A stretch of DNA of 64,000 nucleotides from positions 1-64,000 of the IMG/VR virus record IMGVR_UViG_3300046355_000213; one strand, 5' to 3'. Below, in pieces: positions 4,575-58,100 of the stretch. Position 1 is the first letter of the stretch; each line of letters starts with the position of its first letter. Below the pieces are notes generated by a model. It did no database searches. It worked only from the letters and a program-made list of their open reading frames with translations, and was not told where the DNA came from. The translations under genes were made by a program, and so were the position numbers. This DNA comes from a virus.

Positions 4575-5146
4575 TAACAGAACAGCAAGTACAAGATGCT
4601 AAGGATGAATTTATATCCCTTGTTAGCAGTAATTACAAGAAGAACGGCGGATCAGCTCCTGTGTTTGCCCTGGTGGTAGAACACGCTGATCAGACCATAC
4701 CTGGTATTTTGGTATTCCCTTTACCAGGAGAACTGTTTAGCAGTAAGGAGCATAAGCAACTGCTGATAGACAAAGTATTGCCTGATGTAGCAAAACAGGT
4801 TGTACAAGAGCAGGGGTATAAACCTCTCGCTACTTGTTTTATGATGGAAGCTAACATGTGGATCAAGCAAAAGCAAAAGGATGAAGAAATTACAGAAGAA
4901 GAGATCTCTGACATCCGTAATCAAGGAGCTCCCACAGACATCCTCATGTTCAGCTTTGAAGACAAGTACAGTGAAAGCATGACCATCTTTGAGGTGGAGC
5001 AGAAAAGCTTTGTTACACCTGAAGGTGAGATCACCAAGGAGACAGAACTTATTGCCCGACCAGAGCTAGGTATGGATGACAACAATCATGTTGTTATGAA
5101 AGGGTTGTTTACAGGGTTGTTTAAGATATTTTGGAAAGCGGAATAA
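4571..5146 (+). CDS. Conserved-looking hypothetical protein (191 aa)
   Basis: Alpha/beta soluble protein with strands such as PVFALVVEH, IPGILVFPLPG and DILMFSFED. It is translationally coupled to the AAA+ ATPase (ATGA), so the two may act together, for example as adaptor and motor. No catalytic motif is visible. Its 3' end overlaps the convergent integrase gene by 26 bases, with no terminator between them. Confidence 0.6.
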   Translation: MITEQQVQDAKDEFISLVSSNYKKNGGSAPVFALVVEHADQTIPGILVFPLPGELFSSKEHKQLLIDKVLPDVAKQVVQEQGYKPLATCFMMEANMWIKQKQKDEEITEEEISDIRNQGAPTDILMFSFEDKYSESMTIFEVEQKSFVTPEGEITKETELIARPELGMDDNNHVVMKGLFTGLFKIFWKAE

Positions 5147-6011
5147 TCTGAGGTAACACAGAAGGCTTTGAACGTAGCTTGGTGTAATGATCCAAGACAG
5201 TTCTGGCTTTTCTATGTCCCATCAGGTAAGCCAGTGATAGAATATCTATATTTTGCTCTACCGCTATAGTACCAAAGGTATGTCTACAAGCGTACAAATC
5301 CCGTTCAGGAATATTGAGCTTAGCTAAGACAGGCTTAAGTATTCGCTTTTGAAACTTGTTGTCATCTATGGGGTTGTTGAAGATACTGGTAAATACAAAA
5401 TCAGTAGCTTTTTTCTTATCACAAATAGGCTTAAGGATCTCTTCCAGGCCAAGTGATAAGGGAATATACCGGTTACCTGAAGCAGTCTTAGGACTTTTAA
5501 GGTATCTTTTACCTTCATAGGTACGTGCATAGTTTTTACAAATGTAAATACGCCTGTTGGTAAAGTCTACCATGTTACATTTGAGTGCAACTGCTTCGCC
5601 ATTACGGCAGCCTGACTGTATAAGGAACATCAGAAAAGGATAGTAATACTTCCTCAATCTGGGCACTTGCTCAAAGTGAGCTATCAGTGACAGAAGTTCG
5701 TCATCAGTATAAGGTTGTCTCTTGGAGTTAACTTCACTGTTACGTCTTCTCTTGCACTCATCTAGTGGGTCAGACTTTATGTACTTCATTTTGAGACACC
5801 ACTTGATGAACCTCTTAAGAATAGCCAGCCTGTCATTATATGTGACTGGGCCAAGTTTCTTATCCCGGTTAAGAAAATAACCAAGTTCATCAAGGTCTTT
5901 AATTTTCCAGCGCGCTAGCATGCGCTCAGTTGAAGTAACGTTGTGAGGTACATGTAAACCGTAAACTAAGTCTCTCCATTTGATGTAAGCATTCATTGCA
6001 AGGACCTTCAT
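5121..6011 (-). CDS. int: Tyrosine recombinase (integrase)
   Basis: 296 residues, with an N-terminal SAM-like core-binding domain (about 1-95) and a C-terminal catalytic domain. Catalytic residues: R136 in SGCRNGE, K175 in KSPKTASG, R243 in ACRHTFGT, H266 in LMGHRKAR and nucleophile Y276 in LDHYTKL. The usual first histidine of HxxR is Y240 here (YACR), a variant found in some Bacteroidota integrases. The gene points away from a tRNA-like element 26 bases upstream of its start, the standard int-attP arrangement, so site-specific integration into a host tRNA gene is the likely role. Confidence 0.9.
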   Translation of the reverse strand: MKVLAMNAYIKWRDLVYGLHVPHNVTSTERMLARWKIKDLDELGYFLNRDKKLGPVTYNDRLAILKRFIKWCLKMKYIKSDPLDECKRRRNSEVNSKRQPYTDDELLSLIAHFEQVPRLRKYYYPFLMFLIQSGCRNGEAVALKCNMVDFTNRRIYICKNYARTYEGKRYLKSPKTASGNRYIPLSLGLEEILKPICDKKKATDFVFTSIFNNPIDDNKFQKRILKPVLAKLNIPERDLYACRHTFGTIAVEQNIDILSLAYLMGHRKARTVLDHYTKLRSKPSVLPQIIPLSKIS

Positions 6012-6036
6012 AACAAGTTGATTTATACTGAGTTAT

Positions 6037-6100
6037 GTAGGCTGATTTGTACTCTGTCAAAGTAATGCTCTAAACCAACTGAGCTAACAGTCCAGCCTAC
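6037..6100 (-). other. tRNA-like element, probable attP core
   Basis: On the minus strand the segment carries a recognisable tRNA 5' half: D-arm GCTC AGTTGGTTTA GAGC (6084-6067) and an anticodon arm with stem TACT/AGTA and loop TTGACAG, anticodon GAC (valine). There is no T-arm. Instead the element is closed by a perfect 8-bp inverted repeat, GTAGGCTG (6093-6100 complement) and CAGCCTAC (6037-6044 complement). It sits directly beside the integrase. The simplest reading is an attP site matching a host tRNA-Val gene up to the anticodon stem; a T-armless tRNA-like transcript is the alternative. Confidence 0.65.
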
Positions 6101-6167
6101 GTTTCAGCGAATTTATGCACTAAGTGTGCTTTTGCCAAAATTAAGCTAATTTACTGTAAATCAACGG

Positions 6168-6271: not shown

Positions 6272-6607
6272 ATGGCAAAATTAAGCAAGCAGCAATTAAA
6301 CGAAATGAAGCAGATGATCAGTAAAGGTATAGGCCCTGAAGACATCTCTAATCACTTTAATGTAGCTATCTCAAATGTGCACTACTACAAAGCCAAGTTC
6401 AAAAAAGACGGGCTGGAAGTGCCTAATTTGAAAGGCAGGAGACCTACCGGATCTGTACAACAACCTGCTATTCCCGCTATCACTGAAACCAATGTTCAGG
6501 TAACTGGACAGGACATGCGGGTCGTGGTCAATGGCGTACCGGTAACCATACATGGTAGTGCCAAAAATGTGACCATCAGTAACGGTTCACTGCAAGTGGA
6601 CTTTTAG
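6272..6607 (+). CDS. Small HTH DNA-binding protein, paralogue A
   Basis: Residues about 4-45 form a helix-turn-helix of the resolvase/homeodomain-like kind (LSKQQLNEMKQMISKG, EDISNHFNVAISNVHYYKAKF), followed by a basic segment (KGRRPTG), a Pro/Thr linker and a C-terminal beta segment VVVNGVPVTIHG...VTISNGSLQVDF. The same architecture and C-terminal pattern occur in the next gene. First gene after the integration locus and ends at a strong terminator, so it probably makes its own transcript; a regulator of lysogeny or early expression is a reasonable inference. Confidence 0.65.
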   Translation: MAKLSKQQLNEMKQMISKGIGPEDISNHFNVAISNVHYYKAKFKKDGLEVPNLKGRRPTGSVQQPAIPAITETNVQVTGQDMRVVVNGVPVTIHGSAKNVTISNGSLQVDF

Positions 6608-7301: not shown

Positions 7302-7577
7302 ATGCTTTATCAACTCCCCAATGGCCGTGTAATAGAAATGTCAACAGAGCAATTCTGTGACATGACTGATGATGACTTCGAGTATCTCATTGCCAATAAT
7401 TTTGGTGAAGAAGTAGAAGATCCATTCTTTGGCTCCGTGTTAACCGGTAGTAAGTCTAAATCCATACTGGACACTTTTCCAGATGTACCTGCAGAGGTAA
7501 TGAAAGACTTGACCCAGATCACAGACCAGGAAAAGCTCCTGAATCCTGACATAGACTACAACAGTCAGGAAGACTAA
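7302..7577 (+). CDS. Acidic hypothetical protein (91 aa)
   Basis: Strongly acidic (DMTDDDFEYL, GEEVEDPFF, NPDIDYNSQED), with helix-forming C-terminal half. Own promoter-like leader upstream. Acidic early phage proteins often mimic DNA or bind host proteins, but nothing specific is visible here. Confidence 0.6.
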   Translation: MLYQLPNGRVIEMSTEQFCDMTDDDFEYLIANNFGEEVEDPFFGSVLTGSKSKSILDTFPDVPAEVMKDLTQITDQEKLLNPDIDYNSQED

Positions 7578-40334: not shown

Positions 40335-43300
40335 TTATTGTATCCGTATTCCCCACTCTTTACGGAAGTCATCATCAAAGATGGCTGTCATCTGTACAAC
40401 CTCTTTGGTTATAGGCATAAGCCTAAATAAATATTTCAAAGGTCTGGCTTCATCTGTTGTCTCAGAGTCGCCTGTAGCTACTCCCCAACCTTGCTTTAAC
40501 GTAGCTCCCAAGAATCTCTGGGTGTCCTCTGCCAAACTAATAATAGGCAAAGGAGACTTGATCAGGTTGGTAAACTCAATAGGGTTGTAGTAGAAGGCAA
40601 ACTCGTTGTAGTACTTAGACAAAGCCCTGGCTGTGTACTTGCGGATACCCGTGTACTCATCCATCTCATCATCATCTCCTGGTTTAACAGCCATGAGCAT
40701 CATGTAAAAAGCAATAAGAATCATGACCTCTCTGATGGCACTCTTTAAGTTACCAATGTGCATGTCAATGAATTCCGCTTCTGTGATGTTAAACTCCTCC
40801 CCATTTGCATAAGCATCTGCTTTCATGATGTGGTATCTGGCTTTAGCAGCCGCAATAGCACCATCCGAACCAAAACCTAATACAATACCTTTAAGCAACT
40901 GCCCGGCTCTTACGCTGAATAGCTCACCCATTAAACTGTTGAGCTTACCATATTGGTAAACATCCAGGTCACCGTCCTTGTAGAGGTTACCAAATCTTTC
41001 CTTAGCCATAGCCGGGATCCAGCTACGGAACTGCATCAGGGCCATGCCCCAGCTGTTGGTACGGATCAAATTGATGTCATCACTGGTAGAGTTACCAATG
41101 ATAGTCTTAGCTGCTTTTTTAACAGCGGCCCGGAACTTCTCTGAGTTCTCACTGCCCATGTCTACGCCAGGAATGGTCAGCTCATCATTTTCAATCTTGG
41201 CAGTGGCAAATAAACTCTTCTCTTGCTTGAGCTTGGCAATTTGTTCCTCCAACTTAGCTTTGAACTCTTTACGCTCAGCAGCCGGTAAGTTATAAAACGT
41301 ACTGTAGTTCATCTGGTCTTTCACATAGTTAGTGATGTTGACCAAATTACCACTTTCATCTACCATAAAGTTCTGCATCATGGCAATGGCCAGCGGGTTC
41401 TGTACGGCTTTGTCTGCAATACGCTGGAACACATACATGTTATCCAAACTAAAACTAGCTACTGCTTTAGATACAGAGAGCTTATTACCCTTGTTACGCT
41501 TACCGTCTTCCAGTAGCATATCAAAGTAGTCCAGCATAGCAATAGCTTTACTGTCTCTTTTGGTATACAGGTACATGGACTTAACCCAGTCGTCATTATT
41601 CATAACTACTTTCTTGGTACCCAATAAGAACGCGTTACCCGTACCACCTACAAACTGGGCAGAACCTGATAAAGGGTTTAGGGCTAAAGTCTTTAAGCTA
41701 AAGAAGCCCAGGATAAACTGTAGAGACTTCTGTGCAGAGAACGTCTTGCCAAACATCTTGACCTTTACGTCAAACTGTTCACCTGTACGTCTGTTGTACA
41801 AATAGAAATTAGTAAAGTCCTGCAGGATCTTGGCATTACGCTCATTACCCGGCTTGGTGTCAAGCTCTCCGTTAGGAAGTCGCTTACCTTCATTAAACAA
41901 GTTGGTGACAATACTCTCTTTGTTACGCTCCGCTGTGTTTAAGACAAACACGTCATCCTCCAAAGAGCTCATGCCCTCGTAGTTGTACATGTGACCACCC
42001 CAGATAGAGAATACTTTAAACAAGTCCTTGCTCTTTCTGTCGTAGTTTGGAGTAAGACCTCCATCATCTACACCGATGTCACGGGTAAAGTATACCGGCA
42101 CGCGGTTAAGTACCTCTCCTGTAACAGGGTCCTGGTCTGGAAAATACTGTGAGCCAGAGTCAATAGCCAGCTGCTCAAAGAAGTCACCACCGGCAAACAT
42201 TCCTTTGTTCATACCTCCAAAGACTAACTGATCCAATTTACCCTTGAACATAGATGGTATGAACTCCGGAGAGTACTCATCTATCATACCCAGGCGTTCT
42301 GCATGTCTGATCGTAGACTGGAAATACTTGTATGCCTCCATAGCAGGCTCGTTGCCTTTAGCACTAAGCTCTTTCCAACCGGCACTATGCCACTTGGCAC
42401 TAGGCTTTAAGAAATTATTCTTAGGGTTCAGGTATCCGTCCTGGTTAGGCTTACCCTCTTCATCTAAAATATTATGAGTATCTACCCATTTGTAGAAAGC
42501 TTTAGACACTGCTTCGGCATTAGCCTTCTCATCTGTCATAAACTTAGCCTCCTTGTAATACTCTAGTTTACGGGCTCTCTCCTTCTCATAGCGCTCACCG
42601 TCAAACTCCGTGTTCTCTGCAATCCACTTCCAGTCTCCTGTACGGATGGCCTGGTCACGCTGCCTGTAGAATTCACTGTCGTATTTTTTCAGGAAGTTAC
42701 CTGTCCACTTGCCGAGTTTAAAGTCCAGCATGATGTCAAATAACTTATCTCCCGTAATGCCTTTCTTTTTACCCCACTGCTCCAAAGCGTCTTTGTGCTT
42801 GTGAAGTTCTGTCATCATTTTGTTGAAGTCAGCATCGCGCTTGTTCTGCACGTTTCTAAGCATCTTGTAGAAAGTCTGTATGGCTTTAGTATCCAGCTGA
42901 GACAAAGAGTTAAATGTACCGGCTAAAAAGCTTACACCCTTCTCTGACTTCTCAAAGTTCTCTATACCCATACGCTGTGCAATAGAGCTGGCAATCTCTG
43001 TCAGGTTCTCTTCTACCTCCTCAAGGGTAGCTGCAGCATCGGCAGTCATTTGCTTATATACATCTGAGAGTTCTTTGAGGGCTTCAATGTCCTGCGTATT
43101 ACCAGAAGCAATGATATCGCGGTTGTAATCTGCAATGATCTTATTGATGATACCACTGGTAGAACTGAACACAGATAAAGTATCCAGGGCTGTGCGGATA
43201 TCCCTAGGAGTTAGGGCGTCATTGAGCATTAGCTCCCTGATACGGGCAACCTCAGTGTTACCCAGCTCAATAAACTTGTCAATAGATCCTCTTAGCTCAA

Positions 43301-46121
43301 GGTCACGGATAGCATCACGGTAGCGCTTAAGTTCTTCTTTTTGCTTGAACTTCTCTGCTGCCTTGAACTTCTTTTGCTCAATACGCTTATAGATACCGTC
43401 CAGCTTCTTGATCAACTTGTCCAGGTTCTTGTCTCCTGTAGTTTCATCTACAGATACTGGTAACAGGTAGTTTTGGTCATCCGGTATCATAGCCGGGTTG
43501 AAGTCACCAATCTCAATATTTTTCAGCTCCAGGTTGTCTATCTCATTCTTGGCATTCTTTAGGTACACATACTGGGTACGGATAGGAATAGCTCTTACTT
43601 TACCAAACTTGTTGAAGCCGTAGTGCTCCCTTAAGATACGCTTGTATTCTCCCAGCTGTATGCGGTAAGCCTGAGGCTTAAAGTCCTTGATCTCTGTCTG
43701 GAACTTGGCAATCTCCTGGCTCTTCCAGTCATAGATCTCTACTACTCCGCTTGTGGGAATCACGAGCAAGTCAATAGAACCTGCCATGTCAGCCTTAGGA
43801 TCGTAGATCTTTACCTCCTTCATGAACATGGTACCTACAGGATATGAACCAATCAGCTGCTCAAAGTAGCCATCTAACTTTTTCATGATCTCTGTACCTG
43901 CTGCTGCATGAACAACGGGTTGCTTGGCGTCACGCACAAGACCGGTAGCCGGATCAATATACGCCTCATAGATACTCTCCATCATTAAGTGGATAGCATC
44001 ACCGAACTCTGCCTTTAGAAGGTCAAGTTCCTTCTGGCGCTCATCTCTGCGGTCATTAGGGAATATCTTCTTGTAATACGCGTCTACCTTAGCCGTAGTC
44101 ACAGAGGTCTTCACCGGCCTGCCATCATGTTTATAGATGTGGCGCTTTTGCTTAGTCACCGGATCAATAGAGTTATCCAGGATAAGTCTGTTCTGCTCTT
44201 GCTTAAGTAAGTCTATACTACTTGCCAAAGAGAAGTAAATACCTTCCTCGGCATTGATTGATCCAAGATTACTTGTATCTGCAGAGCCGATCTGCTGTGC
44301 TGCTGCAGCAAAAGGATTGTCCTCAGCTTTTCTAAAAGTGTCTGTGATAATCTTCCATACTTTCTCCCACCAGGAAGCAAGCTTGGTGATTTTCTCCTGA
44401 GTCTCATTAGCAGTGTTGCCCTTGATGATATGCTCACTGATCACCTGGCCAATAGCTTCTTTCTTTAACTTAGTAAAGTTTACAGACCCATCCGGGTTTC
44501 TGTACTCTGGCAGGTTCTTGTATAGCTCTACTATTTCACGGTACAGTTGATAAGACGTGATGTCATTCATCATCTGCTTCATCAGCGGGTGATTATCTCC
44601 CAGCATGTTCACAAAGAAGTGAGCTGCCTCCTCTCCTAGTGTCCTGGCGTCCATAGAGCCCTCTGTGACCTGGATAATGCGGTTAAGCATGTCAGCCTTC
44701 GCATTGGCACTGATCGGCTGTCCTGAGGCATCTGTGATGCTGTCAACCGTTTCCACGCTTACCCCTATCTGGGATAAAAAATTTAGTACTTGTTGCTGGA
44801 GTTCCTGCTCTGAAGCCTGAGGGCTTGCAAAGAATTCATCCGGCAGGTTATCTTGCTGAGAGTCTTGTTGAGCCTGGAAGAGTTGGTACTGCTCTTCATC
44901 CTGCATAAGCTGCTCGGTAGTCTTACGGAAGTCTTCTAATATATTAGTAGCCACCGCATACGCCTGACCATAAAGGGCATTAGACTCAGTAATACCAAAA
45001 AGTCCCAGGATATAATCAAACAACTGGTCAAAGATATTGGCGTATTCTTTCTCTCCGGGTTTAGCTGGGATCTCCAGCAGCTGCTTTACAAACTTACCGT
45101 CTGTGAATATACCTACTATGAATTCATCCAGGTCTCTTAGGGCATAGTTGCCTTCACCGGTCTCATCATTATAACCTCCCAGCTTTTCTTTGGCGTAGTC
45201 AAACAAGTTCGTCAAAGCAGTAACTGCCTCGCCATTACTCTTAAGCTCATGGTAAGTCAGACTGTGCAGGATCTCATGGATAATAGTAGGCTCAGAGCCT
45301 GCTCCACGGAATTTAGAGTCCTGGTTAATAAAGATCTCATTAGTGCCTGGGTAGAATATACCTGCAGCGGTCATACCCCTGGCTTGTAAAGCAGGATGAC
45401 TGCCTGGTACCAGGGTAATCTTTACGTCATTAAGCTTAGCATAAGACATTAACTGTCCTGCCAGTTTATTTAAGGGATGGCCGCTGTCTGCAATCTTTTG
45501 CAAGACCTCAGTAGAACGTGTCTCTGTGCTTTCTGTAAAATACTTACGTCCCACGTTAGCATCCTGGGTATTCTTAGCCAGGGCTTTATTAAACACAAAG
45601 ATCTTGTATCCTGAAGGCGTCTGTCTTACCATAAACTTATAGTAAGGACTGCGGTTCAGGCTTGCTATCCGGTCATTGGTCTGCTTGATCTGCTCAGGCG
45701 TGCTGTACTTGACAAAACTGATCTGGCCATACTGGTTGATAAGGTTGAACTTCTTGTACAGGGCCTCATTGCCTTTTAAAGGCATTGGCATCTCAGCTGC
45801 ATTTTGATCCATGAAAGACTTCATAGCAGCATAACTAGGCTCACCATTGGTGTCCATGCCTTCTGTTAATTGTCCTTGGATAGAAGCTAAAGTCACTTCA
45901 TCAATGCCAGAGTCATTAAGCTGTGCTTTGATGGGACGTTCCCAGTCACCAAACCAGGACTTAAAATCATCTGTATAGGCAACTGCCCAGGCGTCTAAAG
46001 CTTCATCCTTATCAGGCATTACCTGGTTAAGGTCAGCAAAGAGCTGGGACTCGTTACCATTTGGTGCCGTCACTTTACTGACAGCACCGGTATTATCTCT
46101 AAATATGTGACATGAAGCCAT
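40335..46121 (-). CDS. Giant polyvalent virion-type protein with zincin and PD-(D/E)XK domains (1928 aa)
   Basis: N-terminal residues include FKSWFGDWERP, a pattern common in phage polyvalent proteins. A complete zincin follows: H282-EIL-H286 in THEILHSLTYHEL, with a supporting Glu region (FIVGIFTDGKF). A second, degenerate site is EEAAH at 497-501. Residues about 705-830 are a PD-(D/E)XK nuclease: GDAIH (707-711), D784 in AGSIDLL, EIYDWK (795-800) and QLGEYKRIL. Long coiled coils follow, and the C-terminal 500 residues include hydrophobic stretches (ILGFFSLKTLALNPLSG). Such proteins are packaged and injected, and act on host DNA or proteins early. Lies 18 bases after the 4560-residue gene. 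Confidence 0.8.
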   Translation of the reverse strand: MASCHIFRDNTGAVSKVTAPNGNESQLFADLNQVMPDKDEALDAWAVAYTDDFKSWFGDWERPIKAQLNDSGIDEVTLASIQGQLTEGMDTNGEPSYAAMKSFMDQNAAEMPMPLKGNEALYKKFNLINQYGQISFVKYSTPEQIKQTNDRIASLNRSPYYKFMVRQTPSGYKIFVFNKALAKNTQDANVGRKYFTESTETRSTEVLQKIADSGHPLNKLAGQLMSYAKLNDVKITLVPGSHPALQARGMTAAGIFYPGTNEIFINQDSKFRGAGSEPTIIHEILHSLTYHELKSNGEAVTALTNLFDYAKEKLGGYNDETGEGNYALRDLDEFIVGIFTDGKFVKQLLEIPAKPGEKEYANIFDQLFDYILGLFGITESNALYGQAYAVATNILEDFRKTTEQLMQDEEQYQLFQAQQDSQQDNLPDEFFASPQASEQELQQQVLNFLSQIGVSVETVDSITDASGQPISANAKADMLNRIIQVTEGSMDARTLGEEAAHFFVNMLGDNHPLMKQMMNDITSYQLYREIVELYKNLPEYRNPDGSVNFTKLKKEAIGQVISEHIIKGNTANETQEKITKLASWWEKVWKIITDTFRKAEDNPFAAAAQQIGSADTSNLGSINAEEGIYFSLASSIDLLKQEQNRLILDNSIDPVTKQKRHIYKHDGRPVKTSVTTAKVDAYYKKIFPNDRRDERQKELDLLKAEFGDAIHLMMESIYEAYIDPATGLVRDAKQPVVHAAAGTEIMKKLDGYFEQLIGSYPVGTMFMKEVKIYDPKADMAGSIDLLVIPTSGVVEIYDWKSQEIAKFQTEIKDFKPQAYRIQLGEYKRILREHYGFNKFGKVRAIPIRTQYVYLKNAKNEIDNLELKNIEIGDFNPAMIPDDQNYLLPVSVDETTGDKNLDKLIKKLDGIYKRIEQKKFKAAEKFKQKEELKRYRDAIRDLELRGSIDKFIELGNTEVARIRELMLNDALTPRDIRTALDTLSVFSSTSGIINKIIADYNRDIIASGNTQDIEALKELSDVYKQMTADAAATLEEVEENLTEIASSIAQRMGIENFEKSEKGVSFLAGTFNSLSQLDTKAIQTFYKMLRNVQNKRDADFNKMMTELHKHKDALEQWGKKKGITGDKLFDIMLDFKLGKWTGNFLKKYDSEFYRQRDQAIRTGDWKWIAENTEFDGERYEKERARKLEYYKEAKFMTDEKANAEAVSKAFYKWVDTHNILDEEGKPNQDGYLNPKNNFLKPSAKWHSAGWKELSAKGNEPAMEAYKYFQSTIRHAERLGMIDEYSPEFIPSMFKGKLDQLVFGGMNKGMFAGGDFFEQLAIDSGSQYFPDQDPVTGEVLNRVPVYFTRDIGVDDGGLTPNYDRKSKDLFKVFSIWGGHMYNYEGMSSLEDDVFVLNTAERNKESIVTNLFNEGKRLPNGELDTKPGNERNAKILQDFTNFYLYNRRTGEQFDVKVKMFGKTFSAQKSLQFILGFFSLKTLALNPLSGSAQFVGGTGNAFLLGTKKVVMNNDDWVKSMYLYTKRDSKAIAMLDYFDMLLEDGKRNKGNKLSVSKAVASFSLDNMYVFQRIADKAVQNPLAIAMMQNFMVDESGNLVNITNYVKDQMNYSTFYNLPAAERKEFKAKLEEQIAKLKQEKSLFATAKIENDELTIPGVDMGSENSEKFRAAVKKAAKTIIGNSTSDDINLIRTNSWGMALMQFRSWIPAMAKERFGNLYKDGDLDVYQYGKLNSLMGELFSVRAGQLLKGIVLGFGSDGAIAAAKARYHIMKADAYANGEEFNITEAEFIDMHIGNLKSAIREVMILIAFYMMLMAVKPGDDDEMDEYTGIRKYTARALSKYYNEFAFYYNPIEFTNLIKSPLPIISLAEDTQRFLGATLKQGWGVATGDSETTDEARPLKYLFRLMPITKEVVQMTAIFDDDFRKEWGIRIQ

Positions 46122-46139: not shown

Positions 46140-49100
46140 TTAATTGCAACCTTTGTCTTTATCTTCTTTTACTTGGTCAATCTGAGCGCTTCTCACAAAC
46201 TTGCGTACACCTTCTGCATTGCGCAGTACCTCGGTAGCGCCTGTGCTTGCTACAGCAGCATTGAATATCACCAGCTTCTTGCGCGGACGTGACACGGCTG
46301 TGTACATCATGCGGTTCTGCTGTTCTGTTCCACCAGGGAATGACATGATATCATTCTCCAGTACATACGTTGAGTCATACGTACTACCCTGGACTTTATG
46401 AGAAGTGATGGCATATCCGTAGCCAATATCTACGATAGAACCTTTCAGGTCATAAAACTTTCTCCAGGCTGCCTTAGACTCAGACGTACCTCTTGTGTAT
46501 TTTTTAGCTGCAGCAGCTTCCTGTGCCAGGATAGTTTTCCACTTAGCCTTCTCCGTTGGGTTGATGGTCAGCATGGTTGACTTTCTTACGTTAGCCTCAC
46601 CGTTGATATCTACCACAGGAGTGTTAACCGTGATCTCATAGATAGGGAAGCCATACTTTGCAGAAACATCATTGCTGGTTTCTCTTACAGCAGATACTTT
46701 TCCTTTGAAGCCATTCTCAAAAGCAAGCTCTTTACCTACATAGTGAGGCGTGTTTACCCGTACAAAATCTCCTGGTAAATACGGCTGCTCCATAGCATCT
46801 TCAAACAAGGCTGTTCTTACCTGGCGGTTAAAGTTGTCTACTACTTCGTTACGTGCTCCTACAATTACTGATCCTTTTGTAAAGGCCGGATTATTATAAT
46901 CTGCTACGTACTCTGTAACCACAGCTTTAACGTCATTCATGAACTGTACACCCTCGCCGTTCTCCATCTTGTCAGCACGCTCCACTAAAGGATTCTTAAC
47001 CACACCTGGCTGGTCTTTTTGGATACGCTCAATGTTTACAGCAAATACATCTGTAACAGGGATGATAGGACTCTCTGAAGCCTGTCGCATACGCTCTGTA
47101 AGCTCCGCATAGTTAGTGCCCTGCATCAGGTTCCATACAGGTGAGTCTGTGTTATCAGCCACATCAATTGGCGGGATCTGAGCATTGTCTCCCATGAAGA
47201 TGATCTTTGCACCAGGAAGCTTTCTTTCCAGAAGTCTGCCATAGATAAAGTCTCCAATCATGGAAGCCTCATCCACAATGATCAGCCTAGCTGTCTCAAT
47301 AGGATCTGCCTTACCTGCAGCACGGAAGTCTGCTTCTTCATCAGCATTACGCTCTCTGAAATACATAGCGCCAAACTTATCATAGTCCGGTATAAGTCCC
47401 AGCATAGAAGCAATAGTGGCTGTCTTGTAGCCTTTCATAGACTCTTGCAGTACGTTCTTTGCCTCATAAGAAACTGTTGTACCTACAATAGAGTTCTTGC
47501 TTACTCCTGAAGTGGCAATAGCCTTCTGGATAATAGTGGTCTTACCTGTACCTCCACGGCCTTTTAGTAAGAACTGTTGAGCATCTCCTTTTAAGAATCC
47601 TTCTATCTTGTCAATAGCATCACGCTGTCCTTCATTGGCATAGACTCCTTCAAAGAGTTCATACTTCTTATCCAGCTTATCACCTTTAGGTTGCTCAACC
47701 GAAGCTTCAGTAGGAACAACAGACAAGCTATTACTCTCTGCAAAAGGATCTCCATCCCAAGGCACTAAGTTTTCCTCATTAAATAAGTTACCTGCCTGCT
47801 CATCTTGCTGTACTAAAGCGTCTGCTTTGTTGGCAATGTCAATAGCTTCTTGAAGTGTAGGAACATAGTCAGCTATGACACCATCCGGACCCTGGATATC
47901 GTAAGTACCGTCACTTCCTTTTAAGATAGTGAATGCACCAATTTCCAAGGTGTTTGGTGCCTCTGTATTCTCAGCTGCCGGTTGCTCATTAGCCACTTCA
48001 TTAGTCTCACTTTCAGGCATGATCACCTCTGGCTTAGCTACCAGTGCAGCATTGTCAGGATACATCTCCTCACGGGTTGTATTGTTATCAGCCAGCATAG
48101 ATGTAAAGCCTACGTTATTCACTTCAGTGTACATTTTATTGCTTCCTTTTTTGTTGACAGGTCTGAAGATCATATTACCTTTGCCGTCCTCTTTGTATCT
48201 CTCATAAAGTGTATGTACATACATCTTATCATACTGACGGTTTCTTCTCAGCTCTTCTATCTGGTCCTTAGAGTATGCTTTATTAAGTTTTACCACTTTG
48301 ACATAGGGACGCTTGGCAGTATCCATGTCTACGCTTACAGATAAGAAACCACCCATGTTCTTATAGAACTTGGCATTAGGAACAATACTGTCATCCATGA
48401 CGTTATTCTGGTGGAACTGCTTCCAGATACTGGCTGTGTTCAGCTCCATCTCCGGGCTGTTCTTAAACGCATCCAGGATTAACTTAGAAGTGTTTGAAAA
48501 GATCTCCACCGGCAACACGCGTACAAAGTTGAACGCTGTCTCCTGGTTGCCGCCCTGGATCATAGTTAAATAAGCCAGGTCTTTTAAGAACCCTTCAAGC
48601 TCAGTGTTACCTGAGTTGATAGCATACTGATACAGGTCTTTAGCAGAGTCTAGTGTCAGGTTAGTGCGGTAGCTGTCTGTTACACGTCTTAGCATCTTGA
48701 TGACATCAGGCTTGCCTTCTTCACTAGCAATCACCTGCATCAATTCTTTTAAGAACATGTTGTTCTGGATATTCTTATCTGTGCTTTCCTTGATTACTTT
48801 CAGTCTGCGGGCCATGCTGTTGTTACCCATCAACAATCTTTCTGCATGTGCTGCAATGTTGGTCTGGTTACCAGACTCATCCATGAAAGGTGTAGTCTGC
48901 ATGATGTAGTTAATCAGGAAGTCGTTGTACTTCATGATCAGCTCCTCTTGCATATCACGGGTTAAGAAAGCACCTGAGTCTAGTAAGTCTAGTGCAGGCT
49001 GGAACGCTTTTCTGGTACGCTGGTCAAGGGACACAAAGAATGGTGTGAAGAGTTCAAAGATGTCTTCTTTTTGCTTCTTCAACTCACCCATAAATGTGTT

Positions 49101-52100
49101 GTCCATGATACCCTCAGGGTTGGCAATAAAGCCCTTGCTGGATACTTTTCTCCAACGGCCTATCTGCATCACGTTTTCAGTGATACTCTTAGTCTTCACG
49201 TTGTCATAGCCAATACCGGAGATAAACTCAGTCATGTTAGAAGATTGTTCCTGGTACTCAAGGAAGTCAGCCAGTACGGCTATCTGCATCTGAGCATCGG
49301 CAGCAGTCATTACGTAATCCTTAGCATTCATACGCTGAATAGAATCCCGTAGTCCGGCCTCTGTCATTGTACCTACCTGCTTGCGGTTTACGTCTACCAC
49401 TTCTTTAAACATCTTCTTAACCAACTTGAGCTCCTTAAAGTTCCCGTCCTCAGTAGCTTGTACATATCTCTTGTATAAGCTTGTCTGCTCATTAGGGTAT
49501 AGAGCTTTGTAGTACGGTGTGATCATCTTCAAAGCAATTAAGAAGTCATTGATCTTATCACCAGACAACTTCTTGAACAAACTCTTGTTCTTAGCACGCT
49601 CCTTGAATAATCTGTCCAGTACCGGTTGGTTGAACATGTATGCTAACTCTGTAATAGGAACACCTAACTTCTGTAAGTAAAACCAGGTACCAGCTGTATC
49701 AATAGTGATATTCAGAGAGAACACAAACGGGTCTTTAGCAGCATCCACAAAGCCTGATAGGGCTTCATTGATTAAGTCAGAGATCATCATACCGTCTTGG
49801 GTAGTCAAGCTATCCAGGAACAACTGATTCTCCTCGTCTAAATTGTGGCTCAAGTTGATCTTCACATCACGCATACGCGGATTGTCCCCTAAGTTTTTCA
49901 CTACGTTGTTTACCAGGTAGTACAGTTTACCTGCATCATACTTACCCGTTAGTTTAGTTTCACCCAGCTGGGTCATCACTTGAGAAGTGATCTGCAGGGC
50001 AGCAATACCTACTAGTTTTTTACCACTTAAGAAACGGTGACGGATATCCGCTGAGTCAATTAAGCTTCTGTATATTGCATACTTAGAAGATGCTGTAAGA
50101 TCTTCCACACCTTTGAGTCTGTTGATCTCATCCGCCATGTTCTTCAGAGTATCTGTAGAGTTAGGCGTAATCAACTGACGCATGTTCTCAGGAAGTGTTA
50201 CCAGGTCCTGCATGATCTCACGATAGCGGTTCTGGATAGACTTCTTCACAGCTGCATCTAAAAATGCTTTCTTGCGTGACTGTACATCTTTCATCTCTTC
50301 TAAGAAGTCCTTAGTCAAAGACTCTGAGTCAAAGAATTTACTGAACACCTCACGGATCTTCTTGCCTTCTAAAATACTGATGCTCTCTGTTGCATTATAG
50401 TACAACTGCTCAGCAAGGAATGTATCCAGTAAAGCTTGCTCCTCAGGGGTGATAAACTCCCCTTTGTTGTAAAGCTTCTCGTAGTGCTCACGCGTAGCCT
50501 CCTGGGTACCTTTCCATTCGTAGTAAGAAGCTTTACCGTTCTTAGCTACATAGAAGTTAGCCAGGTACATCTGTAACTTGTCAATGTCAAAGTCAGATCC
50601 TGCTTTACCAGTGATCTCTGAAGGCACAACTACCATGTCACCCATCTCTCTTGGCAAGAAGCCTTTGATAGTGATACTCTCAATAGAGTTCATACCTTGT
50701 GTAGGGATACGGAAACCAAGGGCTTTTAAGATACGTGGGTCAATGTCTTTTACATTGATCACTCCGTTTACAGCGCCCGGCAGATTAACACCTTCTAAGA
50801 AGTTAGGAAGATAGACCTCCATGTTGGCAATCTTGCCGTTCTCCATACGGTAGAACTTCAAGTCATTGCTTACCATGCGTACAGAAGCTTGCTCCTCTAC
50901 ACTTAAGTCTTCCAGCTTCATACCTTTGGTAGAAGTCCAGACACCGTCTTTTAAGTATACAAAGCTTCTGCTCTTACTCTCAAATAATGTGCTGGCCACC
51001 TGTACTGCAGGCTTACCGTTCATCTTCTCTGAGATCACACGGCTGTCTACAATAGAGTTCAGGATATTGTCAATCTTCTTGCGGTTAGGCAGCGCATCTA
51101 ATGGGTAGCGGAAGTCAGTCTTGCCGTACTCATTTTCAATAGTGTCAATAGCATCAATGATGTTATCAGGCAGGTCACGGCTCTTAGCTTCTTTTCTTAA
51201 AAGAGAGACCATCTTGGACACGTCCTTCACAGAATACTTACCTGCGGCGTTACGGGTAACACCCAGTTCTTTGAGTAACTTTTCTTTACCCAGCATCACC
51301 ATTTGAGCCAGGATATTATTGTACTCTGTTACTAACTTCTCAGCCTCAGGGGAAGTATACTTACCTCTGAACTTGAAGTTAGACATGATGAGTTTAGTCG
51401 GCTGTGTACCACGAACTACCGCACTCTTAAATGCGTTAGGCATCTCTTGCTGAATACCCAAGTAACGGCTTAGTAAATTTTGTACAGGAATATCAGGCAG
51501 GTTAACTGCACCTTCTTCTTCTACGATGTTTACTTTACCTTCGCTATTGTAGATAGCAGCAAACTCACCTTTCTGGTTGAGCATGTTACCAACCTTCTGA
51601 CCAGACTCAAAACCAATAATGTCTATCTGTCTGTCTAAAGCACTTAAGTATAAGTTTTCAAAAGCAGTATTTTCTACCTGGCGGTAGAACTTAGGCTGCG
51701 TAGAGTTCTTTAAGAACACGGTGTGCATCAAAGGACTCTGTGGATTGTATCCAAAGTACTGAGGCTTCAATACCTGTAGAACAGTGCCTGGATTTCCCTT
51801 AGCTAATGTTGCTCTTGCAGCATCTAGTTGAGCCTCTGAGTATGATCGGTAAGCTACATGGTCTTCAGGCTTAGAGCTGCGGGCAATCATTTCATAAGCA
51901 ATTTCATAATCCCACTGAGCTTGTTGCTCGTGCGTCATGCGAGAGCTTAAGTACAACAGGTCACGGAACATGTCTGGCATGATCCAAGCCTGGGCATCAG
52001 CTTCGTTGATGTCTAAATACTTAGCTGCATCTCCGTAGTTCTTGCCCTTGCTATCTACTTTTAGTTTTACAAACTTTCCGTCTGCTGTAAACTCTGCACC

Positions 52101-55100
52101 AATACGCTCCTCAACTGCAGCTTTATCTTTCTGTAATTCTACCATGGATTTGTACATAGTCTCTACGTACTCAATCATCATGGCTGCTACAACAGTGTTG
52201 TCCTTGAAAGATATGTTGTTAAACGTAGCCAGTTGCTCACCAGAGCGTCTCTTACCATCATGGCGGGACATATTGTCATCCATCCATTGTCTGATCTCCA
52301 GGTTGTCAATAAAGGCAATCTTGGTAGAGTTGGCACCGTTAGAACGCTTAGCCAGGTCTTTGTATAAAGCAGGGTGGCCATAGATCAACTTGTGTTGTTC
52401 TGCTACTGCTACTTCTTTGTTGATTACAAGGAAAGCAATCAGGTTGTTCAACTCATTTTCTGTGATAGCATTCTTATCCTGGATACCGTAACCGGCCAGT
52501 AACTCTGCGTTGATAGAGTTAGTGGCGTAGATCACTTCACCTGCTTCATTGTCACCTACATCAAAGAACATATCCATGTCTTCCAGTGCAGCCTTAGTAC
52601 GCTCAATCTCATTGTTGATGTACTCCATGATACGGCTAGATACTTCAGTAGACGAAATCAAACTGCTCTTGGTAGTTTTTCCTTCTACCACAGACTTGAT
52701 CCGTGCACTGAACTCAGGTCCCAGGATATCCCGGAAGTGAGCCAGCTTCTTCACCTCAGCACCGTAGTACTGGATGTTGCTTGGGTTCTTGTGCTCAGCA
52801 ATGGCCGCATCAAGCTCATCACTTAGTTGGTCTAAGTATATCGTGAGAACTTTACCACCGGATACGAATATGTTAGCATCATCAAAACTTACCAGGGACT
52901 CATTAAAGCCAAGACCAAACTCTGTACTCTTGTCTGAGTTAATGATGGTATAGTGTACGTTTCCTAACAAGTGGTTGATCTCCTGCATTACGCGGTCCGG
53001 GTAAGTCAACACATCAGTGTTCTTTCCTGTACCGGTTGCTTCTGTCACACCACTAATCAGGTGATAGTTCAAGTCAGCACCTTTACGCTTCTTGCCATTT
53101 CTGTCAAAGAAGAGCCCTCCTTTTTTCAGCAACATAGAGTTGGTCTGATACGGGTGTAATACGACTGTACCCTGGCTGTCTACGGTTCCAAACTGTGGAT
53201 TGCTCGTTACAAAGTCAGCTAAAGTCTTAGCCACCTTGAATGAGTTCAACAGGTAAGAAATAGTAGAAGGCTGTGTAATCGTATACTGGTTCTCTCCTTC
53301 TGCATTCTTATGTACCAGAACATTCTCCTCTGGCGTAGTAGCTACTTCAATGTTAAGTAATGTTTGGATTGGACCATTGACAATGCTTCTTCCAAAGAGC
53401 TGGTCAATCGTGTTGATAGACTCGTCTGTGATCTTACTGCGGATAGCACTGTAGGCATCCATGATCTCTGCCTCAAACGATTGTAAGGCTTTATTGCTGG
53501 CAGTAAACTTGATACCCATGATATCCAAAGCGTCCAGTACAGAAGCAAAGTCCGTAGCGCCCATAGCCTGAGCATACTCGCCAGAAGTTCTGTCTAGTAT
53601 AATGCTGCCATTGTCATTGATAGTAAGTAACGTCTCGCCGTTACGCTGGTTATAAGGAACCGCAGTATCTTTGATAGCATTGCTCCACTCAGCACGCTTG
53701 TTATTCTGAGACGCTGTGTCCAGGGAGGCATCATTATAGATAAGTCCGTCACCACCAAACACCATCTTGATAGGGTCATTCTGCATGTTGGTCAAGCTCT
53801 GCTCAAACGCAATACGTAGTCTGACATCATCCGGGGTCAGGTTAGCAACTTCAATCTTAGCACCTGTCTGTGGGTTCAGGTACTTCAAGCGTACCTTCAT
53901 ACGATAGATCCACTCAAAGCCTTCTTTGTACACGCCGTTCTTCTTCTGGAAGCGCTTGTCTAAGGTGTCAAACATCGCGTCAATACCAGGAACAAACTCA
54001 CCACCCTCAATGCGCGACATAGAGCCGTTCAGTTCATTAAGCAGGATAGCATAGATACGGTCATAGTTGCTTAGCTTAGGAAGACCCAAAGCGTTTTTCT
54101 TAAACTCATAACGCTTAGTCTTGTCATTGTACACGTCATCTGTCAAGCTGCCCATAAGTAACTTGAAGTTGGTTGCACCAAATCTGCGTGGGTCAATCTT
54201 TACAGCGTCTGTAATACCCAGGCCATCTGAGTTTAACTCATCCGGAATAGCCTCCAGGTCTTCAGAGATATCAGAAAATGATACACCAAAGCGGCCTATG
54301 CTTCCCTTGAACAACTCATAAAGCTCCATAGGTTGTTGCTTTATAGTTTCCATCTGTGTGTACAGACGGTTGCCAGGGATGAAGTAGTTATCTTTTAGCT
54401 CACGCTTCTCAGCTTCTGTAGCTTTACGGCTTACTTGTTTCTCATACTGCTTGACATAGTTTTGAAACACCGCGTCAAAGTGTGCTGTAATAGCCGTATC
54501 CATGTCTTGCAAAGCTGCATTGAACAGACGCACCAACTCTTTGTTGTTGTTGGCATCCGTCTTGATCAGGGCATCCATGTTCTTACCTTCTTTATAAAGG
54601 TTCATGAAGAAGTAAGACGTTAGTCCTTCTACTGCATAAGTAGTTACCTCTTGTGTGGTTCCAGGTATAGAACGGTAAACAGCTTGCAGGTTGTTCAGGT
54701 CACGCACCGGTACCGCATTGGCAAAACCACCCTGGTTGATTTTCACAAACAGGTTATTGACCACGTTGTCCATTTCAGCACGGTCTTCTTTGCTAAGGCC
54801 CAGGATCTTCTTGATGAAGTCCATCACTTTGGTAAAGAAGCTCTTTGCCTTTGGAGCACCTACCGGGAAATTACCTGTTAAGATATAAGTACGGAACTCC
54901 TCAGCCAGCATCTCACGTACATCGTACATGTTGGCATCCTTGTATTCTTTGGTCTCACCGGTGAACGGGTTGGTAAATGTACCTTTTCTGCTGCTAAATT
55001 CCTTAGCAAGGATAGCCTGCTCAGGAGCGGTCAGGTATGCGTTCCACACAGCCTCAAAAGCTTCGTGGAATGCGGTGCCTTCTTCTGCATTCTCATACAA

Positions 55101-58100
55101 GAAGATAGCTCCTCTCATAAACGCACCATAGGCCTTATTGTGAATTAACGTGCTTACTACATGTAAGGGTACGCCTGGTAAGACGCGGGTCAAAAATGCC
55201 TGCACCTTTGCCAGGTCTTCACGTTTCACATCCGGGTTACCTAAGGATAGTCTATAGAACTCATCCTGGAATGGTACTTCACCATCTTCCAGGTTGGCTA
55301 TGTCATTGCCCAGTAACACACTCATAGCCGTAGGGTCCAGTCCTTTTGTAGCAGGGCCAGCCGCTGGTGCCGGAGGTGTTGCAGCCGTTGAGCTGCCTGC
55401 AGTGGTTACCTGGTCTGCAGGTACTACTACCGCCGCTGGTTTTGCACCACCCATTCTAAGGGAACTCTTGCCTGTTGCAGGTGTATCTTCTTTCTTAGTA
55501 GGGCTCTTTGTACCTGCTACCGTAGTTGGCGCAGGAGTAGCCGTTGTAGCAGCAGGTTGAACTGCTGTGGTAGGCATAGTCTTGTTCCACTTTAGTCCGC
55601 CTGTTGCTGCAGGAGGTGTTGACACTAATGTATCTTTTTCACCAGGTGCCGGGATCTTAGAACTTACCGGCTCATCAGAGGTGTTGAATACTAAGTATCT
55701 ACCTTCTATCTGATAATCAGCACTGTTTACATTAGGGTTGTAAGGTTGGGAGTTGGTATACAGAATAGGTCTTCTGCCACCAGTGTTGTCCATCAGAAAA
55801 GCGTTGTAGCTTGGGAAGGTCTCCCGCTCTGCTACACCACCGTTCATCTTCACTGCCTGGAATGCTCCTTTCTTGTTCAGTAAACTATTGTTCACCGAGT
55901 AGTACAGGTTTTCCAGGATTGCCTCAAAGTTTCCATCTATAGAAACTTCTGTAAATGCCCAGGACTGTGTGCCACGGAATAACTTACCCTTGTTGACATA
56001 GAACTGGTTAGGTCCTGCTGCCTTACCTTTATCAGGAGAAGACCAGAATACAGTACCGCTTAGGTAGTTTAAAATATCTTTCTTTTGACGGGCCTGATCA
56101 GCAGTTAAGTTTTTCTTACCCATCAGTTTTGTCAGTGCCTTTAGTGCATCCTTTAAGTTCACAAGCTCTTCTTCTGAGAACTTGCGGCTCTTAATTCTAA
56201 ACACGTTACCTGTCTTTTTACCACGGGCAACCATACGGCCTTTGTCTACACCACCCATGTTAAGGGCTTTGTCTACTGTGCCAATAGCCAGTTCAATAAC
56301 TTCACCATTAGGATGCTCTAGGTTAAGGAAATCATCTGAGTCAGATTTGATCACACTGCCTTGTAAAGCAATCTCCTGAGGCATACCTGTATTGATATCC
56401 TTTGGGGCCAGTCTTACTGTACCTTTGCTTCTTCCTACTACAGGGAAAGCAACTACTTCACCTGCAATATTACTAGCCTTGATGGCGTCGCGCTCTGTCT
56501 TGAAGTTTTCAATGGCACCAAGTATCTGGTCATCTGTTAAATCTTTAGTGGCAAAGTTTTTCTTAACCAGTTCAACGGCTTTAGCCTTGTCTTCACCAAA
56601 GAGTACCTCACTGCCATTCATGGAAGTGTAGACAATAGTGTCCTTGGTAGGATTCTGTAACTCGTTACCCTCCTGGTCCACATACACAAAGCTGTCTCCT
56701 ACTTTCTTTACGACTACCAGCTTGATATCATCCTGGTACTTGTCTTCGCGTCTGATGCCAAAAGTATCATTGGCCGCTGTAACAGGAATTAAAAAGTAAG
56801 TGTCTGGCTCAAACATCATGCGCTCCGTAAAGCGGAAGAAGCGGTTAGAACCGTTCTCTGTATTTAATGTGCCATCCCAGTTAAAGTGCTGGCCGGTTGT
56901 CTTAAAGAAAAATGTAGAGCCAAACACAGGCTTTGAACTTCTCACCTGTCCTTCTTCATCTACCTCGTCCTCTTCAATGCCGTCATTGTCCGTATCTACT
57001 ACCGGTGTATTATCCGGCTTATTAGTAGGGTCTAAATCTTCCGGTCTGGGCAAGTCATCTGTTACTTCAACACTAGTGTCTTCTGCAGTAGTAGCAGTTT
57101 GCTCTGCACGCTTCTTAGCAAAGGCCCGGAATGCTTTGTAGTTTCTGTCTAAGTAGTTGGCAAAGAAGTCAGGGTCTGCTAATAAGTTGATGTGCTCCAG
57201 TACTGATCCCTGGTCTTCCTGTAATTGGAAGTAGTCTGTCAGGTTACCAAAAGCATCATTGGCTACAGCAGTCTGTACCGGACGTTGTCCGTTTTTCTCC
57301 AGCTCCGCGTTTACATATTCTGTAAAGAATTGACTGCCCTGCTTTTTGAATTGCTCCAAAGCTGCAGCTGTTTGCTCCGCACTCTGATCTGCTGACAAGC
57401 CCTTGTTGCCTTTAATAGCATCTACCTTGTCTAAGTATTTGGTCAGGGCTTTTTGATAGCGCTCCAATTTCTTGAGCTTGGCTTTCTTCTCAGCACCTAA
57501 CTTAGGATCTGTGTTGACTTCAATTTCCTGCTGCAACATGTTCACCTCTTTTTCCAGTTCTAACTGAGAGGTTAAAGTAAACACGGTGGAGAAAGGCAGG
57601 TTCTCAAAACCTTGCTTAGTCTTGATGCCATCCAGTACCTGTTGTTGTCTGGTAATTGTAGCTTGGTAAGTATCCTGCATAAAAGTCATCTGGTTCACAG
57701 CTTCTTTAAATGCCATGTACCGGTATGCCTCATCAATAAACTCAGGGGTACCAATTTTGTGTTGTCCCGGATTGAACGGGTTGACAAACTCTGTCTGCAG
57801 TTTGTTGTGGATCTTAGCCACTTGTTCTGCACGAGTCTGGAACTTAGTCACCTGCTGCACCATGCTCTCATGGTTCTCTTTAGAGAACTCCACACCAAAA
57901 GCCTGGGTAAATTCCTCAGGGCTCAGGTTCTTCACATAGTCTTGCATTCTACCTGTAAGTACATCCAGTGTACCGGTAGTGATACCTGTCATGATAAAGT
58001 GACGCATAGCATCATCCTGGATATCATGAAAAGTCTTCTTGTCTTTATCAACTGCCGCGTCCTTCATTAGGGAAGCAAAGTTGGCCTGCATGGTTACTCC

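What the first reader, a model, noticed from the sequence alone, without database searches (positions are those of the whole stretch)
6037..6100. Half tRNA-Val closed by an 8-bp inverted repeat next to the integrase
The element has D-arm and GAC anticodon arm but no T-arm, and GTAGGCTG/CAGCCTAC closes it. As attP it would match the 5' half of a host tRNA-Val, whereas most phage attP sites carry the 3' half. As an RNA it would fold as a T-armless tRNA-like structure.
Basis: partly seen in the sequence, partly recalled or inferred. Interest (0 to 1): 0.75.

Follow-up and report, generated by a model that had tools for sequence, protein, structure and literature searches.

The report
crAss-like phage attP with half tRNA
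A phage related to the gut virus crAssphage carries, right in front of its integrase gene, the front half of a bacterial valine tRNA gene that looks like its docking site in the host chromosome, and the flanks of this half pair into a stem that has been kept while its letters changed, which suggests a folded control element.

Summary
On the minus strand, 6100..6037, lies the 5' half of a tRNA-Val(GAC), from acceptor strand to anticodon arm, closed by GTAGGCTG/CAGCCTAC. The record is a crAss-like phage (Crass_capsid). The half sits between a divergent gene and a co-directional tyrosine integrase.

The same arrangement occurs in all 5 records (4 distinct sequences) with a close integrase. The 37-nt core is identical in all. 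The closing stems differ in sequence but always pair: 32 of 32 cells, 6 of 8 positions changed on both sides. The repeat is conserved as a structure.

Best reading: attP, with crossover in the anticodon loop. It belongs to the rare class that carries the 5' tDNA half, so integration would put the tRNA behind the phage's integrase promoter and the integrase behind the host tRNA promoter. The stem is then part of the integrase leader. In 3 of 4 phages its 3' strand can instead pair over the integrase start codon, which would suit a switch that senses integration (inferred).

No integrated copy and no host tRNA were found; host genomes could not be searched properly. New variant of a known kind.

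The parts
5121..6011 (-). Tyrosine integrase gene (296 aa), same strand as the half tRNA and just downstream of it
   Evidence: PF00589 E 3.4e-19; phrog_1 integrase; AlphaFold model begins with four helices (read as the core-binding domain) at residue 5, with no arm-binding domain in front; catalytic part low confidence
6093..6100 (-). 5' strand of the closing stem, GTAGGCTG; its last G is tRNA position 1
6051..6093 (-). 5' half of tRNA-Val(GAC): acceptor strand 6093..6087, D-arm 6084..6067, anticodon arm to about 6051; proposed attP core, crossover in the anticodon loop 6060..6054
   Evidence: 6087..6051 identical in 4 distinct phages; 35 of 38 to a complete tRNA-Val(GAC); Rfam tRNA 21.2 bits. 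Crossover position inferred
6037..6044 (-). 3' strand of the closing stem, CAGCCTAC
6004..6042 (-). Alternative hairpin: the 3' strand of the closing stem pairs with the start region of int, covering the ATG at 6011..6009
   Evidence: z -2.89 in the window, -4.82 in L001, -3.73 in L010; not supported in L014 (z -0.05)
6108..6139 (-). Candidate Bacteroidota-type promoter TTTG (6139..6136), 20 nt, TAAATTCG (6115..6108); predicted transcript start near 6101
   Evidence: share of shuffles as good 0.003 (window), 0.011 (L001), 0.274 (L010), 0.011 (L014); consensus recalled, start inferred
6272..6607 (+). Divergent small gene (111 aa); similar gene in the same place in L001 and L014; no family match

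Best explanation
The element is the attP of a crAss-like phage. The integrase recombines it with a host tRNA-Val(GAC) gene, crossing over in the anticodon loop, whose stem gives the usual inverted core with a 7-bp overlap. Because the phage carries the 5' half, integration should rebuild the tRNA as phage promoter + phage leader + 5' half + host 3' half. At the other end it should leave host promoter + 5' half + integrase. The two genes would thus exchange promoters. In the free phage the same stretch is the 5' leader of the integrase mRNA, and the flanks of the half pair into a helix that closes the half tRNA. Shown here: the arrangement, the identical core in four distinct phages, and the covarying stem. 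Inferred: integration, promoter exchange, and the role of the stem in integrase expression.
For: Tyrosine integrase directly downstream. Same half tRNA in front of the same integrase in 5 of 5 records with a close relative (window, L001, L009, L010, L014; L009 and L010 identical there). Core 37 of 37 nt identical although the integrases share only 53-78% and the flanking DNA has diverged. Half is tRNA-Val(GAC). Of 81 sources around a conserved helicase (window plus 80 loci), only those five records have the half, and they are the ones with this integrase. A relative with another integrase (L085) carries an ordinary 3' half of a tRNA-Thr there, so the slot is an integration module. Stem: cognate flanks pair best in 4 of 4 rows and columns, -15.0 to -16.7 against -4.0 to -12.2 kcal/mol for non-cognate (22-nt flanks); 32 of 32 cells paired against 9-15 when slid. 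In 3 of 3 controls with a 3' half (L085, L023, L020) flank pairing is ordinary: 14-59% of random windows do as well. The phage has tRNA genes but ARAGORN finds none for Val, so it would have to rebuild the host tRNA.
Against: No integrated copy and no attL/attR were seen. The host and its tRNA-Val gene are unknown, so the core was not compared with a real attB. The pairings were chosen from the same sequences on which they were counted, and only four distinct sequences exist. The promoter is weak in L010. If the host leader happens to equal the phage 5' strand, integration would not split the stem.
Confidence: 0.75

Rival explanations
1. The inverted repeat is a pair of protein-binding sites on DNA (arm-type sites of the integrase or a regulator's operator), not an RNA stem.
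For: Repeats flank the core on both sides; other repeats in the region look like binding sites (17-nt direct repeat at 94% in L001; 19-nt inverted arms in the window). In L001 and L010 the pairing extends upstream of the predicted transcript start, which a transcript could not use.
Against: The integrase shows no arm-binding domain in Pfam or in the model. Stem sequences do not follow integrase kinship: window and L001 stems are alike, yet the closest integrases are window with L014 and L001 with L010. Stems contain G-U pairs and bulges.
Confidence: 0.25
2. The element is a free T-armless tRNA-like RNA, for instance a decoy for enzymes that cut or charge tRNA-Val.
For: Rfam tRNA model spans the element with a closed acceptor; the cloverleaf-like fold is the best or near-best.
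Against: Score below cut-off, no T-arm. It is always next to the same integrase in 5 of 5 records and was not found in the other helicase relatives. Loop letters do not vary at all, as expected of an att core and not of a structure alone.
Confidence: 0.05
3. A decayed tRNA-Val gene left by an old acquisition, with no present function.
For: No complete tRNA; a host match was not shown.
Against: Core identical in four distinct phages with a diverged neighbourhood and a co-varying stem.
Confidence: 0.03

Closest known systems
Islands and phages with a 5' tDNA fragment at attP (159 of 3919 Islander islands, PMC4383910; archaeal pTN3-like integrases, PMC8371274)
   Same: tRNA 5' half at attP; tRNA rebuilt and expressed from the element's side (the integrase promoter in pTN3-like elements, per the review)
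   Different: Here a covarying helix closes the half; the pTN3 integrase gene is split on integration (as told in the review), here the site lies upstream of an intact gene; crAss-like phage
State-dependent promoter switching of int in ICEKp1, ICEclc, ICEEc1 (PMC13023037)
   Same: int next to the tDNA; the host tRNA promoter drives int when integrated, an element promoter when excised; stem-loops in the int leader
   Different: There the tRNA keeps its own promoter; here the tRNA would also change promoter, and the stem strands lie on both sides of the crossover
Lambda sib retroregulation of int (recalled)
   Same: An RNA structure near attP whose link to int changes on integration
   Different: sib lies downstream of int; here the structure is in the leader; no RNase III evidence
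tRNA-dependent lysogeny of mycobacteriophages (PMC10865867)
   Same: Integration into a tRNA gene through a tyrosine integrase
   Different: There the core is about 10 bp and the phage brings a whole cognate tRNA; here the core is at least 37 nt and no tRNA-Val is carried
T7-like cyanophages with int and a tRNA-Leu attP (PMC8776855)
   Same: Phages without known stable prophages carry int and a tRNA-matching attP
   Different: Cyanophages; attP downstream of int

Membership tests
tRNA-targeting tyrosine integrase module with tDNA-fragment attP | Tyrosine integrase gene beside the fragment | tested here: met
   in 5 of 5 records
tRNA-targeting tyrosine integrase module with tDNA-fragment attP | Fragment ends at a tDNA crossover site (anticodon loop) | tested here: met
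   Identity among the phages ends three bases past the anticodon loop
tRNA-targeting tyrosine integrase module with tDNA-fragment attP | Fragment identical to the host's tRNA gene | tested here: inconclusive
   35 of 38 to a phage tRNA-Val(GAC) gene; host genome not reached
tRNA-targeting tyrosine integrase module with tDNA-fragment attP | Integrated copies with attL and attR | tested here: inconclusive
   None in viral contigs pattern scans; one distant integrase without a 5'-half tRNA in front in 84,980 species genomes
5' tDNA-fragment class | 5' end of the tRNA, not the 3' end, is in attP | tested here: met
tRNA gene (Rfam RF00005) | Score over gathering cut-off, T-arm present | tested here: not met
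   21.2 of 29 bits; ARAGORN none
Crassvirales (crAss-like phages) | Crass major capsid protein | tested here: met
   PF23898 E 2.1e-32, L005:17319-18932, i.e. 101319-102932 of the record
Crassvirales (crAss-like phages) | Place in a TerL or capsid tree | not tested
   -
tRNA-dependent lysogeny | Phage carries the cognate whole tRNA and a short (~10 bp) core | tested here: not met
   No tRNA-Val in the 125,034-base record; core at least 37 nt
State-dependent promoter switching of int | Host tRNA promoter drives int in the lysogen | not testable with these tools
   No lysogen known; follows from the arrangement only

The most novel reading that the evidence does not exclude
attP doubles as an RNA switch that reports integration. 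In the free phage the 5' flank pairs with the 3' flank across the half tRNA as soon as it is transcribed and leaves the integrase start open. Integration replaces the 5' strand by the host leader, so the freed 3' strand folds over the integrase start codon and silences int although the host tRNA promoter now reads into it. Support: two mutually exclusive pairings of the same strand; the closing stem has P about 1 until transcription passes the ATG by roughly 8 to 25 nt, after which the occluding hairpin wins at equilibrium. Against: the hairpin is not significant in L014, cognate pairing for it is best in only 2 of 4 rows, and the switch needs kinetic trapping and a host leader unlike the phage one.
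Probability: 0.25. Interest if true: 0.82.

Novelty: new variant of a known kind. Interest (0 to 1): 0.6.

Why it matters
Whether crAss-like phages integrate is unsettled; a 2024 study of epsilon crAss-like phages (passages, PMC11054128) reports only two incomplete related prophages. A defined attP with a predicted target, the anticodon loop of tRNA-Val(GAC), makes the question testable by junction PCR or read mining. If the promoter exchange is real, a tRNA of the lysogen depends on a phage promoter. If the stem acts as a switch, it would be an RNA that reads integration state through a recombination site.

Tried and rejected
Complete tRNA: rejected. Missing 3' half elsewhere in the window (split gene): GTTCGAATC with up to one mismatch has 0 matches; the second tRNA-like hit of the record lies in a normal tRNA-Ile of a cluster. 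Described phages and plasmids: no DNA match for the int region, only integrases under 60% identity. Half-tRNA BLAST gives only matches covering under 80% of the query, many in annotated ordinary tRNA genes. Bacteroidota plasmid records were read for tRNA-Val(GAC); the tRNA-Val genes found were TAC. Pattern one search had a wrong spacing and found nothing; corrected. L120, an unrelated phage with an arm-domain integrase, also has a 5' half of tRNA-Val with the acceptor strand re-paired (GGGTGA/TCACCC), but 5% of random windows do as well and a T run follows, so it may be a terminator; kept as a weak parallel. Literature listed no report of a closed half-tRNA attP or of an attP in a crAss-like phage; this is a statement about those ten searches only.

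Full report
What is there. The element lies on the minus strand between a tyrosine integrase gene (6011..5121, minus) and a small divergent gene (6272..6607, plus). Read 5' to 3' it is GTAGGCTG overlapping the acceptor strand GGACTGT, the D-arm, an anticodon arm with loop TTGACAG (GAC), a few unmatched bases, and CAGCCTAC. ARAGORN sees no tRNA in the window. The Rfam tRNA model matches the whole element without the T-arm at 21.2 bits, below its cut-off of 29.

What genome it is. The record is a virus record of 125,034 bases. Its major capsid protein matches Pfam Crass_capsid at 2.1e-32, so the phage is crAss-like. It carries a tRNA cluster without any tRNA-Val.

Relatives. Scans of viral contigs with the integrase and with the half tRNA gave four further contigs with an integrase 53-65% identical to the window's. 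All four have the half tRNA at the same place and orientation; two of them (L009, L010) are identical there, so with the window there are five records and four distinct sequences. The other six of the ten integrase loci match only in part, at 23-47% identity, and were not counted. The core TTAGCTC...GACAGAGT, 37 nt, is identical in all. A scan with a conserved helicase gave 131 relatives, of which the best 80 were kept. With the window, that is 81 sources. The close integrase occurs in five of them, the same five records; two more (L085, L114) have weaker integrase hits (flanks reached are limited). The half tRNA occurs in the same five; a further hit of the loose pattern, in L072, is a complete tRNA-Met. 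One relative, L085, has a different integrase near a homologue of the divergent gene (read by eye from the printed sequence) and an ordinary 3' half of a tRNA-Thr (isotype read by eye).

It is tRNA-Val(GAC). Complete tRNA-Val(GAC) genes in other phage records match the half at 35 of 38 (L122, L125) and 31 of 38 (L123 type) positions. Acceptor strands differ between the phages (GGACTGT in window and L001, GGATCGT in L010 and L014), as expected if each matches its own host.

The closing stem. The 22-nt flanks of the core pair at -15.4, -16.7, -16.4 and -15.0 kcal/mol, and every non-cognate combination is weaker (-4.0 to -12.2). Letter shuffles reach these values in 1, 5, 36 and 2 of 2000. Random windows of the same phages reach them in 0.84, 0.44, 0.51 and 1.0% (20,000 windows). 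In an eight-position register all 32 cells pair, six positions have changes on both sides, and sliding the partner leaves 9-15. The register was set by hand from the pairing with bulges left out, so it leans towards the structure. Swapping 3' strands between window and L001 keeps 31 of 32, since these two stems are alike; all other permutations keep 17-26. Folding gives the closing stem P near 1, and the D-arm plus anticodon-arm form is the best fold in L001 and L014 and within 2.1 and 0.5 kcal/mol of it in the window and L010. Against dinucleotide shuffles the folds of the short elements have z -2.04 (window), -0.29 (L001), -2.04 (L010) and -2.47 (L014). Ordinary 3'-half sites (L085, L023, L020) show no such closure.

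RNA or DNA. The integrase lacks an arm-binding domain by Pfam and in the model, whose N-terminal part is confident while its catalytic part is not. Stem similarity follows the acceptor type and not integrase kinship. This favours structure over protein sites. Against it, in L001 and L010 the pairing extends upstream of the predicted transcript start, and there are other repeats around the core.

Promoter. A Bacteroidota-type promoter (consensus recalled) lies in front of the half, with its predicted start at the first bases of the stem. Share of letter shuffles as good: 0.003 (window), 0.011 (L001), 0.274 (L010) and 0.011 (L014). So in the phage the half tRNA would be in the leader of int.

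How it would work. Crossover in the anticodon loop with a 5'-half attP exchanges promoters: the tRNA would be read from the phage promoter, int from the host tRNA promoter. Each half of this has precedent. The review of archaeal recombinases says pTN3-like elements integrate by the 5' half and that the tRNA is then expressed from the integrase promoter, a situation seldom met in bacteria (passages, PMC8371274). ICEKp1 int is driven by the host tRNA promoter when integrated and by its own end promoter when excised, with stem-loops in the leader damping the former (abstract and passages, PMC13023037).

A possible switch. The 3' strand of the stem can instead pair with the start of int. This hairpin is stronger than shuffles in the window, L001 and L010 (z -2.89, -4.82, -3.73) and not in L014 (-0.05). 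In growing transcripts the closing stem is near P 1 until past the ATG and then loses to other pairing. Full-length equilibrium folds favour the hairpin even with the 5' strand present, so a switch would need co-transcriptional trapping. I give this 0.25.

What is missing. No integrated copy was found. Host tRNA genes could not be searched. Literature searches listed nothing on a closed half-tRNA attP or a crAss-like attP. Of the papers cited I saw: abstract and passages of PMC13023037 and PMC10865867, and passages of PMC8371274, PMC4383910, PMC11054128 and PMC8776855.

Noticed in passing
L085:1-1146 and just upstream: A crAss-like relative has a different tyrosine integrase near a homologue of the divergent gene, with a 3' half of what reads as tRNA-Thr(GGT) in the same orientation, so the slot seems to be an exchangeable integration module.
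   Followed up: partly
L120:3230-3274 (minus): An unrelated phage with an arm-domain integrase carries a 5' half of tRNA-Val(GAC) whose acceptor strand is re-paired directly after the anticodon loop and followed by a T run; its record holds no complete tRNA.
   Followed up: partly
L001:7303-7319 and 7439-7455: A 17-nt direct repeat at 94% flanks the core, perhaps a regulator site; the window has 19-nt inverted arms at 6017-6035 and 6147-6165.
   Followed up: no
window 46143-59822 (minus): A single open frame of 4560 aa beside one of 1928 aa at 40338-46121; the smaller has no PHROG match, the larger was not searched.
   Followed up: no
L006:16098-16195: ARAGORN calls a 98-nt tRNA-Pro with anticodon AGG far from the tRNA cluster of the phage, unusually long.
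   Followed up: no
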